DNA from: Fusobacterium mortiferum ATCC 9817
GTDB lineage: Bacteria; Fusobacteriota; Fusobacteriia; Fusobacteriales; Fusobacteriaceae
Reading direction: 5' to 3'
Length of the DNA stretch: 64,000 bases
Assembly: GCF_000158195.2 (NCBI RefSeq)
Contig: NZ_GL987994.1
Span: forward strand, 182,343 to 246,342
Part shown: piece by piece, positions 14,488 to 22,976 of the stretch
How the letters are laid out: every line of letters begins with the position of its first letter
Position numbering within the stretch: position 1 is the stretch's first letter
Position numbers and translations under genes: made by a program
The notes under the pieces: model-generated
The model's database searches: none
The model's input: the letters and a program-made list of their open reading frames with translations, nothing else
Told to the model about the DNA's origin: nothing

Positions 14488-15246
14488 TTATTTTCTAATA
14501 ATTTCATTTAACTTGATATTTGGATTGTGATATTTTCTTCTATTTTTTATTGTAAAATTTTTCATATAGATAGCTTCTTTTGGACACCAATGAAAACAAG
14601 CAAGGCAATGAGTACAATTTGAATTAAATATAGGTTTTCCATTTTGTAATTCAATATTTTTAGTTGGACATACTTGTTTGCAGATTCCACAGCTAATACA
14701 ACTATCATTTACAATAAATTTTTTAGGGGAGAACTCCCACTCTGAAAATAGCTTCATTATATAATATTGAAAAATTTGGAAATAATTATTAGATAATTTT
14801 CTATTAATTCTCTTTTTAATATCTTCAATAACAGGAATAATATCTATTTCTACTTGTTTTAATTTCTCATTATCTTTTTCTATTGGAAATAGTATAGCAT
14901 TATCTGGCATAAATAAAATATTTTCATAATTTATATTTTTATTTTGAGATTTTAAAATTTTTCTAAAATTTATAAAAGTAGCCCCTGCAATACTATAGCA
15001 ATTTGGGAGAGCAAATATATATTCTATTTTGGAAAAATCAAATTTTTTAATAATATTTTTTACAAGTGGAGGGATATCCCCAAAATATACAGGAAAAATA
15101 AATCCAACTTCTTTAGATTTTGGAGTAATTTTTTCAAAACGTGAGAGAGTTTCTATTGGAATTAAATTACAATCTATGAAACTTTCTTTAATTTTTTTAG
15201 CAATATACAGGGAATTCCCAGTTCCAGAAAAATAATAAATTTCCAT
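14488..15246 (-). CDS. EFR1 family flavodoxin-ferredoxin
   Basis: A 252-residue electron-transfer protein joining two domains. The N-terminal flavodoxin-like part opens with IYYFSGTGNSLYIAKKI, an FMN phosphate-binding loop. The C-terminal part has two 4Fe-4S motifs, CISCGICKQVCP near residue 183 and CTHCLACFHWCP near 209. EFR1 proteins are widespread in anaerobes and their partners are mostly unknown. It ends the minus-strand run that includes the EI24, phosphatase and M48 genes. Confidence 0.92.
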   Translation of the reverse strand: MEIYYFSGTGNSLYIAKKIKESFIDCNLIPIETLSRFEKITPKSKEVGFIFPVYFGDIPPLVKNIIKKFDFSKIEYIFALPNCYSIAGATFINFRKILKSQNKNINYENILFMPDNAILFPIEKDNEKLKQVEIDIIPVIEDIKKRINRKLSNNYFQIFQYYIMKLFSEWEFSPKKFIVNDSCISCGICKQVCPTKNIELQNGKPIFNSNCTHCLACFHWCPKEAIYMKNFTIKNRRKYHNPNIKLNEIIRK

Positions 15247-18285: not shown

Positions 18286-19866
18286 ATGAAAATTATAAAA
18301 CAATTATCAATAGCGATAATTATAGGATTAGCATTGGTAGGATGTACTTCAACAGAAAGCTTTAGGGAGATAGGTGGAGTTCCTTACAAGGTAGAGAAAA
18401 ATAGAGTAGAAGAGGGAGATTATACTCTAGATAACTCTTTTTTTAGAAAAAGAGGATTACCTATACCAAATGTTTTTAAAGGAAAGGATATAGAGTATCT
18501 TACTGCTAGAAATGATACCCTAAAAAAATATGATTATGATTTTTTTGATGGGGTAGATGAGAAACAAGCTTTAAAATTTTATAAAGATTTAGAGGTAAGA
18601 GGTTATGGAGATAATTCTCCTTATTGGAGATGGAAGATAACTCTTGATAAGGATGAATTTTTTACAGCTATAAAAAATAATCTACCATCTGTATATAGAG
18701 GTAGACCTGCAGAAGTACTTACTCTTGATGATGGGCAATGGAAATCTATCAAAATAACTGAGGCAGGTATAGGAAAAATAAAAGATGTAGAGGTAGCTGG
18801 AAGAGGAAAATCAGGAGTAGTTACCTATATTTTAATTACTACAAATAAAAATAAATACTTAGTTGCTAAAGAGTTAAATATTAGAAAACTTTTTGCTTTA
18901 ACAAAATCTACAACTGAAAGTGGAAAAGATATTTTGATGTATGGAGCAAGAGGTGGAGCTGGAAAATATCAAGAGAGTCCAATTAGAAGAAATATAACTC
19001 TTTTGCCAGCCTCTTATTTTGTAATAGAATATACTGGTGGAAGAGCTAATATCTATGGTGGAGGATATGGACATGGTGTAGGGATGGGACAATATACTGC
19101 TTATGATTTAGCAAAAAATCATGGATACACATATAAACAAATTCTATCTAGACACTATCCACACTCTCAACTAAAAGATATGTATTCTTTAAAAGGGGTA
19201 GGGAAGATTATAAATGTAGGTATTACTACTAATAATTCTTTAGACCATAGCAAAGTGATACTATCTAGTAATGGAAAAATGAGAATAAATGGATCTGGAT
19301 TTAAAATAGATGTACCAGCTAAACAAAAAGTTGTAATAATAAATAATGGAGATAGACTTTGGGTAAGTGTAGATGGAAAACATAGAGTAAAAACTGTAAA
19401 TCCACTAGATATAACAGCTTATGGATATTATATAACTTTGGAAGGATTGAAAAAAGGACACACTACAACTCCTAGATATAGGGGAGATATGTTAATAAAA
19501 CCATCTAAAACTAACTCTAAGAAAATAAGGGTAATAAATAAAGTAAAAATTGAAGATTATTTAAAACAAGTAGTACCAAGTGAGATGCCAGAAAGTTTTG
19601 GAGTGGAGGCATTAAAAGCACAAGCTGTAGCAGCTAGAACTTACGCTTTAAGTGACTACTTAAAAAACAGATATGAAAAAGATGGATTTCATGTAAAAGA
19701 TACAACAGAAAGCCAAGTGTATAATAATGCAAAGGAGAATGAAAGCTCTACAAAGGCAATAGAAGCAACTTCTGGAAAAGTTCTTATGAATGATGGGAAA
19801 CCAATTGATGCTAAGTACTTCTCTACTTCATCAGGATTTACAGAAGCAGCTAACTACATTTGGTAG
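18286..19866 (+). CDS. Lipoprotein with circularly permuted SpoIID/LytB domain
   Basis: A 526-residue lipoprotein (lipobox ALVGC). SpoIID-family proteins are peptidoglycan lytic transglycosylases. The order of the domain halves is swapped here. The part normally at the C-terminus, ending in GGGYGHGVGMGQYTAYDLA, lies near residues 90-300. The part normally at the N-terminus, with the catalytic glutamate in VVPSEMPESFGVEALKAQAV near 428-447 and YFSTSSGFTEAANYIW, forms the end. The stop comes exactly where the usual family continues into the segment found at the start here, so the protein is complete rather than truncated. The organism has no sporulation context; it probably trims septal or wall glycan. 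Confidence 0.85.
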   Translation: MKIIKQLSIAIIIGLALVGCTSTESFREIGGVPYKVEKNRVEEGDYTLDNSFFRKRGLPIPNVFKGKDIEYLTARNDTLKKYDYDFFDGVDEKQALKFYKDLEVRGYGDNSPYWRWKITLDKDEFFTAIKNNLPSVYRGRPAEVLTLDDGQWKSIKITEAGIGKIKDVEVAGRGKSGVVTYILITTNKNKYLVAKELNIRKLFALTKSTTESGKDILMYGARGGAGKYQESPIRRNITLLPASYFVIEYTGGRANIYGGGYGHGVGMGQYTAYDLAKNHGYTYKQILSRHYPHSQLKDMYSLKGVGKIINVGITTNNSLDHSKVILSSNGKMRINGSGFKIDVPAKQKVVIINNGDRLWVSVDGKHRVKTVNPLDITAYGYYITLEGLKKGHTTTPRYRGDMLIKPSKTNSKKIRVINKVKIEDYLKQVVPSEMPESFGVEALKAQAVAARTYALSDYLKNRYEKDGFHVKDTTESQVYNNAKENESSTKAIEATSGKVLMNDGKPIDAKYFSTSSGFTEAANYIW

Positions 19867-19876
19867 GGGGAAGAAA

Positions 19877-21190
19877 ATGAAAAAATATTTAGGGGTAATA
19901 TTAGTACTTACTACTATGATTCTAAATATATTAGTAAAATCATATGTCGGAATAGGAGTTAATGGAGTTTTAATTTTTTTGGGAATTATAGCTCTGATAA
20001 AGGGATTTAAGTTGGGAGAGATAGTGGAGAATGGGTATTTAAGTGGTAAAAAATCTCTTTTGGTAATAAAGATATTTTTATTAGTGGGTGGGATTTCATC
20101 TATTTGGATAATGTCAGGAACAATTCCCACAGTTGTATATCAGGGTATAAGATTGATGAATCCCAATTATTTTTATCTATCATCATTTTTGATTACTTCA
20201 GTTGTAGCCTTTCTTCTAGGAAGTGCCTTTGGAACATCAGGTACAGTTGGGATAGCTATGATAGCTATTGGAAAAGGTTTGGGAGCTGATTTATCAATAG
20301 TAGGTGGAACTGTAATATCTGGAGCTTATTTTGGGGATAGATGTTCTCCAGTATCATCTAGTGCCAATTTAGTTGCTACTCTTACAAAGACTAATTTATA
20401 TATCAATATAAAAAATATGCTAAAGACAGGAGCAATTCCCTTTGTATTGAGTGGAATACTATATGTACTTTGTAATAGTGGAAGTAATGAGATAGTAAAA
20501 AATATAGCTATGTTAGATTTATTAGAGAAAAATTTTAATCTTACATATTTAAATTTTCTACCAATAGTAATTATTTTAGTTCTAACACTTTTGAAAGTAA
20601 ATGTGAAAATCTCTTTGATACTTAGTATAGTTATGGCTATGATACTTAGCTATTTTATACAAGGGAGGGAAATAGTAGATATAGTAAGAACTCTCTTTTT
20701 AGGATTTTTTCTTGAAAGGGATAATCCTCTTTACCCTATATTAAAAGGTGGAGGGATTCTTTCTATGTGGAAAACTGCTATAATAATTTTTATCTCTTGC
20801 TGTCTTTCAGGTTTGATTCAGATGCTGAAGATTTTTTCAAAAATTGAGGAGATAATTTTAAAAAGTAAAAGTGAGTTTTCTCTTTTTATATGGACAGTTA
20901 TAGTAAGTATAATAGCTGGAATGTTAGGTTGTAATCAATCTATTGCTGTGGTAATGACAATAGATATTATGAAAAAAATTTATGAAATTAAAAAAATATC
21001 TAGAGAAAAATTTGCTATTGATATTGAAAATAGTGCCATTGTCCTAGCTGCTGGTATTCCTTGGAACTTAGCTAGCCTATTTCCTGCTACTGTGATGGAG
21101 TTACCTAGCTTAAAATATTTAGCTTACTCCTATTTCATTTTTTTAGTTCCAATAGTGAGAATTATAGAGAAAAAAATATATAAAAAATAA
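19877..21190 (+). CDS. NhaC family Na+/H+ antiporter-like transporter (first)
   Basis: A 437-residue polytopic membrane protein. The family signature SGAYFGDRCSPVSSSANLVAT near residues 148-168 and the later LGCNQSIAVVMT fit the NhaC/ArsB superfamily. NhaC relatives exchange Na+ for H+ or for substrates such as malate/lactate or amino acids. ATG 19877 has GGGGGAAG just upstream, only 10 bp past the SpoIID stop. It lies before, but is transcribed separately from, a second NhaC-like gene under a lysine riboswitch. Confidence 0.85.
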   Translation: MKKYLGVILVLTTMILNILVKSYVGIGVNGVLIFLGIIALIKGFKLGEIVENGYLSGKKSLLVIKIFLLVGGISSIWIMSGTIPTVVYQGIRLMNPNYFYLSSFLITSVVAFLLGSAFGTSGTVGIAMIAIGKGLGADLSIVGGTVISGAYFGDRCSPVSSSANLVATLTKTNLYINIKNMLKTGAIPFVLSGILYVLCNSGSNEIVKNIAMLDLLEKNFNLTYLNFLPIVIILVLTLLKVNVKISLILSIVMAMILSYFIQGREIVDIVRTLFLGFFLERDNPLYPILKGGGILSMWKTAIIIFISCCLSGLIQMLKIFSKIEEIILKSKSEFSLFIWTVIVSIIAGMLGCNQSIAVVMTIDIMKKIYEIKKISREKFAIDIENSAIVLAAGIPWNLASLFPATVMELPSLKYLAYSYFIFLVPIVRIIEKKIYKK

Positions 21191-21272
21191 GAATGAAATA
21201 TATATCATTAATAATATATATTTTACATTAATAAAATAATTAGTTATAATCATTTTTGTAAATAAAATATAA

Positions 21273-21434
21273 AAATAGAGGCGCAACTGACAAGAGTAAT
21301 ATTACTTAGTTTGACAAACAGTGAGGTAATATAAAAGGGGAAGTTGCCGAAATGAAAAAGAGGTCAGGCTTTTTTGTTGGTAATTCAGAGAATATCTGTC
21401 TTACTGTCATTGAGAAATCAATGGAGTGCTATTT
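21273..21434 (+). ncRNA. Lysine riboswitch (L box)
   Basis: The conserved elements occur in order: AGAGGCGCAAC, GACAAGAGTA, AAAGGGGAAGTTGCCGAA, the GGTCAGGCTTTTTTGTTGG region, CTGTCATTGAGAAATCAATG and the closing GGAGTGCTAT. P1 is formed by AAATAG (21273-21278) and CTATTT (21429-21434). It is followed by an intrinsic terminator and an NhaC-like gene, so lysine should switch transcription off. The match to the L-box consensus is strong across all helices. Confidence 0.95.
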
Positions 21435-21471
21435 GTGATTGTAACTTATAAAATATATTTTATGATATTTT

Positions 21472-21506
21472 ATCACAGTTTAGTATTCTAAACTGTGATT
21501 TTTTTA
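21472..21506 (+). terminator. Expression-platform terminator of the lysine riboswitch
   Basis: A perfect 12-bp stem, ATCACAGTTTAG with CTAAACTGTGAT, has a TATT loop and is followed by seven T residues. It lies 38 bases after the aptamer and 22 bases before the transporter start. Confidence 0.92.
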
Positions 21507-21527
21507 TTTTAAAAAACAGGAGGACAT

Positions 21528-22976
21528 ATGTTTGAAGTAATTAAATTAATGCCAGTTGTTATACTAGCAGGACTTATGATAGGAGGATTTGATGCACTAA
21601 TAGCAGCACCTATTGCTACAGTAGCAGCAGCATTAGCAGCAGTAATAACAGAAAAAAGAAAATTTAATGAAATTTTAGATGCAGCACTTTCAAATGTAAG
21701 GGAGATAGTGATAGCTCTATTTATTTTGATGATGGCATATGCTATGGCAGAAGTATTTATGTCAACAGGAGTAGGAGCAGCTATAATCAATCTAGCTTTG
21801 AAAATAGGGATAACAGGGAGAACAATAGCAATAGTAGGAGCAATTGTAACTTCAGTTCTTTCAATAGCCACAGGGACAAGTTGGGGAACATTTGCAGCTT
21901 GTACTCCGATATTTTTATGGCTTAATTATATAGTAGGTGGGAATATTTTCTTAACTTTAGGGGCAATAGCTGGAGGAGCTTGTTTTGGAGATAATATAGG
22001 ACTTATCTCTGATACTACAATAGTCAGCTCTGGAATACAGGGAGTAGAGGTGATAAAAAGAGTAAGACACCAAGGGGTATGGTCTGGTTTAGTTTTACTA
22101 TTAGGAATCATAGCTTTTGGAGTAGCAGGTTTTACTTTTGACTTACCTAATATAACTGGAAATGGAGCAGAGGCAATAGCTAAAATACCAGCAGATGTGT
22201 GGACAAAATTAGCTGCAGAAAGGGAGTCAGCAGTAACACTGCTTAACCAAGTAAAACAAGGTGTTCCTGTATATATGATTCTTCCTTTAGTGCTTGTTTT
22301 AGGAGCAGCTTTTAGAGGTTATCAAACTTTTATCTGTCTTTTTATAGGAATAATATCTTCATATGTTTTAGGAAAGATAGCAGGAACAGTTGTAGATACA
22401 AGAGATTTTTTAGAAAATCTGATAATGTCTGGATTTTCTGGGGCAGGGTCTTGGGTAATAGTAATGATGATGTGGGTATCTGCTTTTGGTGGAATAATGA
22501 AATCAATAGATGCTTTTAGACCTCTATCTACTCTACTTATAAAAATTTCTAAAAATGTTAGACAGCTTATGTTTTGGAATGGAGTTTTATCAATAGTAGG
22601 AAATATGACTTTAGCAGATGAGATGGCTCAAATAGTTACTGTTGGACCTATTATTAGAAACCTTGTAGAAAAAAATGTAGAGGGAAGTCCAGAAGATATG
22701 GAAAAATTAAAATTGAGAAATGCTACATTTAGTGATGCTATGGGAGTTTTTGGTTCGCAACTTATACCTTGGCACGTATATATAGGTTTTTATATAGGAA
22801 TAGCTTCAACAGTTTACCCACTGTATGACTTCAAAGCTTTAGATATAATAAAATATAATTTTATTGCCTATATAGCAGTAATAAGTATGTTATTTTTAAC
22901 AATAACAGGTTTAGATAGAATGATTCCAAATTTTGGATTACCAAGTGAACCAAAGGTAAAATTAAAAAAGTTTTAA
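21528..22976 (+). CDS. Lysine-regulated NhaC family transporter
   Basis: A 482-residue membrane transporter with the NhaC pattern GGACFGDNIGLISDTTIVSS near residues 146-165 and IATGTSWGTFAACTP upstream of it. The lysine riboswitch and terminator directly ahead identify it as a probable lysine permease of the type called LysW in comparative genomics, presumably Na+-driven. Fusobacteria ferment lysine, so uptake may serve both energy and synthesis; no lysine-fermentation genes are in this window. AGGAGG lies 5 bases before the ATG. Confidence 0.87.
   Translation: MFEVIKLMPVVILAGLMIGGFDALIAAPIATVAAALAAVITEKRKFNEILDAALSNVREIVIALFILMMAYAMAEVFMSTGVGAAIINLALKIGITGRTIAIVGAIVTSVLSIATGTSWGTFAACTPIFLWLNYIVGGNIFLTLGAIAGGACFGDNIGLISDTTIVSSGIQGVEVIKRVRHQGVWSGLVLLLGIIAFGVAGFTFDLPNITGNGAEAIAKIPADVWTKLAAERESAVTLLNQVKQGVPVYMILPLVLVLGAAFRGYQTFICLFIGIISSYVLGKIAGTVVDTRDFLENLIMSGFSGAGSWVIVMMMWVSAFGGIMKSIDAFRPLSTLLIKISKNVRQLMFWNGVLSIVGNMTLADEMAQIVTVGPIIRNLVEKNVEGSPEDMEKLKLRNATFSDAMGVFGSQLIPWHVYIGFYIGIASTVYPLYDFKALDIIKYNFIAYIAVISMLFLTITGLDRMIPNFGLPSEPKVKLKKF

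What the first reader, a model, noticed from the sequence alone, without database searches (positions are those of the whole stretch)
18286..19866. Circularly permuted SpoIID peptidoglycan lytic domain
Seen: GGGYGHGVGMGQYTAYDLA, normally the end of an SpoIID/LytB domain, lies near residue 262. VVPSEMPESFGVEALKAQAV with the catalytic Glu, normally the beginning, lies near residues 428-447. The protein stops at TEAANYIW, exactly where ordinary members run on into the segment found here near residue 90 (PYWRWKITL). Each half occurs once, so this is permutation rather than duplication or truncation. Known: SpoIID proteins are lytic transglycosylases acting on stripped glycan. A swap of domain order in a lipoprotein of a non-sporulating Gram-negative bacterium appears unreported to my knowledge.
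Basis: partly seen in the sequence, partly recalled or inferred. Interest (0 to 1): 0.75.

Follow-up and report, generated by a model that had tools for sequence, protein, structure and literature searches.

The report
Naturally circularly permuted SpoIID-type wall enzyme
Fusobacterium, Cetobacterium and their nearest relatives carry a peptidoglycan-cutting enzyme whose two halves were swapped end-for-end once in evolution, and this rearranged lipoprotein has taken the place of the ordinary enzyme that their sister genera still have.

Summary
The 526-aa ORF at 18286-19866 (+) is a lipoprotein whose SpoIID/LytB domain is circularly permuted. Residues 63-303 match the second half of ordinary members and residues 304-526 the first half. 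It ends on the invariant Trp of the loop between the halves, and the N-terminal half starts on the other side of that loop. Rotated in silico, it becomes one continuous TIGR02669 match. A predicted model has one confident fold, and its secondary-structure elements match those of an ordinary-order Bacillus relative after rotation; no permutation-aware superposition could be run.

The permuted order occurs in 44 of 98 fusobacterial genomes, in eight Fusobacteriaceae genera that form one clade on an RpoB tree. No genome has both orders. The permuted gene sits directly behind kdsB. The ordinary short gene, between a radical-SAM gene and tilS in sister genera, is missing from that operon in all six permuted genomes checked. 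Both halves are closest to a long-form SpoIID/LytB family of Bacillota, not to the fusobacterial enzyme. So this is non-orthologous displacement by a Bacillota-type gene, permuted once. The catalytic Glu433 is invariant and dN/dS is about 0.1-0.2. Glycan-strand cleavage is inferred, not shown. No paper on it was found in an open-access library.

The parts
18286..19866 (+). cp-spoIID: circularly permuted SpoIID/LytB-domain lipoprotein, 526 aa (start codon to stop)
   Evidence: same order in 44 fusobacterial genomes
18286..18345 (+). signal peptide with lipobox, aa 1-20, lipidated Cys20 (LVGC)
   Evidence: Cys20 is the only Cys of the protein and is invariant in 32 permuted homologues
18346..18471 (+). 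low-conservation linker, aa 21-62, between the lipid anchor and the permuted domain
   Evidence: pLDDT under 50 at residues 17-43; no remnant of the A-half tail found
18472..19194 (+). B half, aa 63-303: C-terminal half of an ordinary SpoIID/LytB domain, with conserved YWRW (113-116) and GGGxGHGxGM (258-267) motifs
19195..19863 (+). A half, aa 304-526: N-terminal half of an ordinary domain (beta subdomain 307-411 plus PF08486 411-501), ending at the invariant Trp526
19582..19584 (+). codon of Glu433 (PSEM), aligned with the catalytic Glu of SpoIID crystal structures
   Evidence: alignment; invariant in 32 of 32; E101 in C. difficile (PMC6221140)
17529..18269 (+). kdsB (CMP-KDO synthetase), 16 nt upstream; conserved neighbour of the permuted gene in the permuted genera
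   Evidence: F. animalis record

Best explanation
An ancestor of the Fusobacterium/Cetobacterium clade gained, most likely from Bacillota, a long-form SpoIID/LytB gene. Its catalytic domain was circularly permuted once, probably by in-frame tandem duplication followed by loss of the outer halves: the old C- and N-termini were joined by a short linker, and the chain was cut in the loop after the invariant Trp. The product became a lipoprotein expressed behind kdsB and displaced the ordinary short SpoIID, which was lost from the mltG-radical SAM-tilS-ftsH operon. The protein probably folds into one SpoIID-type domain and cleaves peptide-free glycan strands in the periplasm with Glu433, after an amidase has removed the stems. 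Shown: the permutation in sequence, its single clade, the mutual exclusion, the empty site in the old operon, the nearer kinship to Bacillota, purifying selection. Inferred: direction of transfer, duplication route, enzymatic activity, outer-membrane site, septal role.
For: Two-stretch inverted matches to TIGR02669 and to SpoIID crystal sequences. Rotation restores one continuous TIGR02669 match, profile 2-269, 184.1 bits, against 129.2 and 53.2 for the halves alone. BA order in 44 genomes, ordinary order in most of the other 33 with a match, never both. RpoB tree: the BA genera are one clade, 99/96, in 100% of bootstraps. The BA gene directly follows kdsB in loci of seven of the eight BA genera and lies about 80 nt after it in g12. 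In AB genera the ordinary gene lies between radical-SAM DUF4080 and tilS; in the six BA genomes fetched no spoIID is there, and in five of them radical SAM and tilS are direct neighbours. Profiles of both halves score 238-242 (A) and 185-212 bits (B) on Bacillus, Tumebacillus and Brevibacillus long forms but 102-127 and 43-58 on fusobacterial ordinary proteins. Trees put BA with the Bacillota long form, 100/100. Model pLDDT 79, pTM 0.77, elements in rotated 1:1 order with the AB Bacillus model. dN/dS 0.10-0.19 with Glu433 and His263 invariant. An ABAB tandem ORF exists in Alkalihalobacillus. One Amidase_3 gene and no second SpoIID in the genome.
Against: No tandem intermediate and no remnant of a lost half was found in Fusobacteriaceae, so the route is inferred from general knowledge of circular permutation. 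The BA clade sits on its own branch (0.48) in an unresolved fork with Bacillota lineages, so an ancient fusobacterial copy lost elsewhere is not excluded. The new C-terminus (511-526) is modelled with low confidence. Foldseek follows chain order and finds SpoIID only weakly (4rwr_B, prob 0.96, TM 0.36 by target). B. subtilis LytB, a SpoIID-domain protein, is listed as not hydrolysing peptidoglycan (PMC10653849), so a SpoIID domain does not prove activity.
Confidence: 0.85

Rival explanations
1. The permuted order arose by fission and re-fusion: the two halves first became separate genes (or two partial paralogues) and were later fused in the opposite order.
For: The new C-terminus coincides with the loop between the halves and no duplication remnant is left.
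Against: Both halves group with the same Bacillota long form in separate trees (long group on one side of a branch in each, SH-aLRT 91 and 72). No genome with split halves was seen among 98 fusobacterial genomes, whereas a tandem duplication of the same family exists in Alkalihalobacillus.
Confidence: 0.15
2. The protein is a non-catalytic amidase enhancer, like B. subtilis LytB/CwbA, rather than a glycan-cleaving enzyme.
For: SpoIID/LytB families include LytB, listed as not hydrolysing peptidoglycan (PMC10653849). The genome has one Amidase_3 gene that could be its partner. The Zn-binding cysteines of C. difficile SpoIID are absent: Cys20 is the only Cys.
Against: The catalytic Glu433 and its surroundings are invariant in 32 permuted homologues. 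The Gram-negative Waddlia SpoIID is an active lytic transglycosylase/muramidase (PMC6635528). It displaced the ordinary SpoIID.
Confidence: 0.25
3. The permuted gene descends vertically from the fusobacterial spoIID in situ and only looks like the Bacillota long form by convergence or loss of signal.
For: Exact mutual exclusion of the two forms in all genomes.
Against: Different locus, with the ordinary operon missing its spoIID. Both halves are far nearer to Bacillota, and the tree separates the forms with 100/100 support. About 90 extra residues in the B half are shared with Bacillota long forms (comparison).
Confidence: 0.03
4. The order is an assembly or annotation artefact.
For: None.
Against: Same order in 44 genomes, including complete single-contig assemblies, and in an annotated F. 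animalis record. dN/dS about 0.1-0.2.
Confidence: 0.01

Closest known systems
SpoIID of Bacillota (PDB 4rwr B. anthracis, 5i1t/5txu C. difficile; TIGR02870)
   Same: Both halves, the catalytic Glu motif, the GHGxGM motif and the Pfam SpoIID core
   Different: Halves in inverted order; score 129.9 bits against a cut-off of 234.75 for the SpoIID equivalog; no Zn-site cysteines; lipoprotein of a bacterium not known to sporulate; about 90 extra residues in the B half
Long-form SpoIID/LytB-domain proteins of Bacillus, Tumebacillus, Brevibacillus, Paenibacillus (TIGR02669)
   Same: Nearest relatives in both halves, with the long B half
   Different: Ordinary order, an extra N-terminal region of about 110-180 residues or embedding in larger proteins, no lipid anchor in the sequences read
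Ordinary fusobacterial SpoIID (about 380 aa) in the mltG-radical SAM-tilS-ftsH operon
   Same: Same domain class, same phylum, mutually exclusive with the permuted form
   Different: Ordinary order, short B half, different locus, different subfamily; the Fusobacteriaceae members read have no lipobox
Waddlia chondrophila SpoIID homologue (PMC6635528)
   Same: SpoIID domain in a non-sporulating Gram-negative bacterium; shown to be a septal lytic transglycosylase/muramidase
   Different: The paper's main text does not mention permutation ('permut' 0 times); another phylum
Tandem (ABAB) SpoIID/LytB proteins of Alkalihalobacillus
   Same: Same long-form family; the kind of tandem intermediate from which a BA protein could be cut
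   Different: Four halves in one 1290-1319 aa wall-anchored protein; independent of the fusobacterial event in the tree

Membership tests
SpoIID/LytB domain proteins (TIGR02669) | Score above the curated cut-off | tested here: met
   172.8 bits against 83.3; 184.1 in one stretch after rotation
SpoIID/LytB domain proteins (TIGR02669) | One collinear domain, Glu motif before the GHGxGM motif | tested here: not met
   Two stretches in inverted order: a permuted variant, not an ordinary member
SpoIID/LytB domain proteins (TIGR02669) | Conserved catalytic Glu | tested here: met
   Glu433, 32 of 32 homologues; aligned with SpoIID crystal sequences
SpoIID/LytB domain proteins (TIGR02669) | SpoIID fold of both halves together | tested here: inconclusive
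   A half aligns to 5i1t (Z 6.9, 119 residues). The AB relative aligns over both halves (TM 0.70 by target) and its elements correspond 1:1 after rotation; no permutation-aware superposition was available
SpoIID equivalog (TIGR02870) | Score above the curated cut-off | tested here: not met
   129.9 bits against 234.75
SpoIID equivalog (TIGR02870) | Zn site (H134, C140, H145, C146 in C. difficile) | tested here: not met
   Cys20 of the lipobox is the only Cys
Lytic transglycosylase acting on denuded glycan | Enzymatic activity | not testable with these tools
   Needs a biochemical assay
Natural circular permutant | New termini fall between the halves, old termini are joined, each half occurs once and derives from one parent family | tested here: met
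Bacterial lipoprotein | Signal peptide with lipobox Cys | tested here: met
   Cys20 invariant in 32 homologues; by motif only, no signal-peptide predictor was available

The most novel reading that the evidence does not exclude
The permutation is adaptive: it moved the membrane tether from one end of a secreted Gram-positive-type enzyme to the loop between the two halves of its catalytic domain, converting it into an outer-membrane-tethered glycan cutter that works better or in a new place in a diderm. This would explain why it displaced the ordinary SpoIID once and was kept in all descendants sampled.
Probability: 0.2. Interest if true: 0.75.

Novelty: new variant of a known kind. Interest (0 to 1): 0.62.

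Why it matters
Natural circular permutations that can be placed on one branch, with the nearest donor family, the displaced gene and its empty site all identified, are uncommon; this one is in a cell-wall enzyme of medically relevant bacteria (the Fusobacterium nucleatum group). It makes testable how a permutation becomes fixed, and whether moving the tether point changes what a peptidoglycan lytic enzyme does. It also shows that order-dependent tools (Pfam, Foldseek) see only half of such a protein.

Tried and rejected
A remnant of the A-half tail in the N-terminal linker (trace of a tandem duplication): BLAST extended some Bacillota matches into residues 20-62, but the scores were no better than shuffled sequence. 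Foldseek of the permuted model gave no significant PDB match (best E 3.6e-3, unrelated folds) because it is order-dependent; the SpoIID row was rank 22. The VIA list was filled with NAD kinase, PI3K and lipid kinase matches of the beta subdomain 307-411 at Z 5-8, treated as common beta arrangements. Viral contigs: no relative. About 150 Bacillota genomes: no BA order, though the two draws were largely the same genomes. Plasmids: full-length collinear matches only in Fusobacterium. Papers: no hit for SpoIID with 'circularly permuted' or with Fusobacterium; subscription papers and preprints are not in that library. Other phyla (Bacteroidota, Cyanobacteria, Spirochaetota) were not surveyed for independent permutations.

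Full report
WHAT WAS CHECKED. The ORF at 18286-19866 (+) encodes 526 aa, starts 16 nt after kdsB and ends at TAG. Pfam sees only the SpoIID core at residues 411-501. NCBIfam TIGR02669 gives two stretches (172.8 bits, cut-off 83.3), and phmmer against PDB sequences gives two stretches in inverted order on 4rwr, 5i1t and 5txu. The genome has no other SpoIID.

GEOMETRY. Against about 60 Bacillota proteins from the genome collection, residues 309-526 match the first half and residues 63-302 the second half, with a few residues between the halves (Tumebacillus L046: 177-398 and 404-651). In ordinary members the link reads ...HEVW-ADGDGA-FPGTPLPYL...; the permuted protein stops at ...ANYIW and its N-terminal half begins ...VFKGKDIEYL. 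Rotating the sequence gives one continuous TIGR02669 match (profile 2-269, 184.1 bits) where the halves alone give 129.2 and 53.2.

STRUCTURE. AlphaFold2 on 15 permuted sequences: mean pLDDT 79.3, pTM 0.77. The ordinary-order Bacillus relative L051: 83.1 and 0.79. The order of strands and helices in one is that of the other after rotation, by comparing the two DSSP lists. Foldseek places the ordinary-order model on 5i1t over both halves (E 2.2e-11, TM 0.70 by target), but the permuted model only in part (VIA 5i1t Z 6.9, residues 304-523), as expected of a chain-order-dependent aligner.

DISTRIBUTION. Among 98 fusobacterial genomes, 44 carry the permuted order, all in eight Fusobacteriaceae genera. 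Thirty-three others have a match: nearly all of these show two stretches in ordinary order, and a few show the A half only. The rest, including all sampled members of one genus of family f4 (g17), have no match. No genome has both orders; genus g2 members G067 and G068 carry two permuted paralogues. On an RpoB tree of 29 genomes the permuted genera form one clade (99/96, 100% of bootstraps) nested among ordinary-order genera of the same family. Named members include Fusobacterium mortiferum, F. gastrosuis and Cetobacterium and F. animalis and F. vincentii.

DISPLACEMENT. The permuted gene follows kdsB directly in the loci of g1, g2, g4, g6, g8, g9 and g11; in g12 the kdsB match ends about 80 nt before the permuted match on the same strand. 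In the ordinary-order genera looked at, kdsB has no SpoIID neighbour, and the ordinary gene follows a radical-SAM/B12 DUF4080 gene and precedes tilS, with mltG upstream and ftsH downstream (one genome has an extra gene before tilS). In the six permuted genomes fetched, spoIID is absent from that operon: five keep mltG-radical SAM-tilS-ftsH, and one (G019) keeps mltG-tilS-ftsH. Profiles of each half score about twice (A) to four times (B) higher on Bacillus, Tumebacillus and Brevibacillus long forms than on fusobacterial ordinary proteins. A concatenated tree of rotated sequences joins the permuted proteins with the Bacillota long forms at 100/100 and excludes the fusobacterial ordinary proteins; the permuted proteins are one group at 85/100. 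The half-trees agree on this (SH-aLRT 91 and 72). So the permuted gene is not the rearranged fusobacterial spoIID but a different family that displaced it. Transfer from Bacillota is the simplest reading; an ancient fusobacterial copy retained only in permuted form is not excluded.

HOW IT AROSE. Tandem duplication with loss of the outer halves is the standard route (general knowledge). The same family has such a tandem in two Alkalihalobacillus species (ABAB in one ORF). No intermediate or remnant was found in Fusobacteriaceae, so the route is inferred; fission and re-fusion remains a rival.

WHAT IT DOES. Cys20 of the lipobox, Trp114, Trp116, His263, Glu433 and Trp526 are invariant in 32 homologues, and dN/dS against five congeners is 0.10-0.19, lower in the A half. 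Glu433 aligns with the Glu of the SEM motif of SpoIID; mutation of the catalytic glutamate (E101A) inactivates C. difficile SpoIID (PMC6221140). A SpoIID homologue cleaves glycan in a Gram-negative non-sporulating bacterium (PMC6635528). The genome has an Amidase_3 that could supply denuded glycan, and no SPOR protein was found. The likely role is cleavage of denuded glycan in the periplasm, possibly at the septum. Since B. subtilis LytB is listed as not hydrolysing peptidoglycan (PMC10653849), a non-catalytic amidase-enhancer role is kept as a rival.

NOVELTY. No paper in the open-access library joins SpoIID with circular permutation or with Fusobacterium. The annotated F. animalis copy is named only 'SpoIID/LytB domain-containing protein'. 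It is a new variant of a known kind: a natural circular permutant of a known enzyme family, with a well-resolved history.

Noticed in passing
L069:5656-9528 and L073:5659-9618: Alkalihalobacillus pseudalcaliphilus and A. trypoxylicola carry one ORF with two full SpoIID/LytB units in tandem (ABAB); the first has a C-terminal wall-sorting signal.
   Followed up: partly
G027, G029-G031, G033-G039 and others of family f4, genus g17: All sampled members of this genus, and members of some other f4 genera, show no SpoIID match at all, so the domain is dispensable in part of the phylum.
   Followed up: no
L171/L172 and L173/L174: Genus g2 genomes G067 and G068 carry two diverged permuted SpoIID paralogues, one at kdsB and one elsewhere.
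   Followed up: partly
L203 (NZ_CP077186.1 133594-143111): F. animalis SB029 'plasmid' pSB029A (218 kb) carries kdsB and the permuted gene with chromosome-like neighbours; it may be a chromosomal piece or a secondary replicon.
   Followed up: no
L053, L054, L055, L074, L080 and others: In Paenibacillus the long-form SpoIID/LytB unit lies inside ORFs of about 1800-2400 aa.
   Followed up: no
model m35fb8c9bf742: The ordinary-order Bacillus model weakly matches the spore germination lytic transglycosylase SleC (9h68, E about 2e-3), hinting at a distant fold relation.
   Followed up: no
window 14488-15246 and 19790-22976: A flavodoxin/ferredoxin-like protein (by eye, not searched) and two Na+/H+ antiporter-family genes lie near the gene; the downstream neighbours are not conserved among permuted genera.
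   Followed up: no
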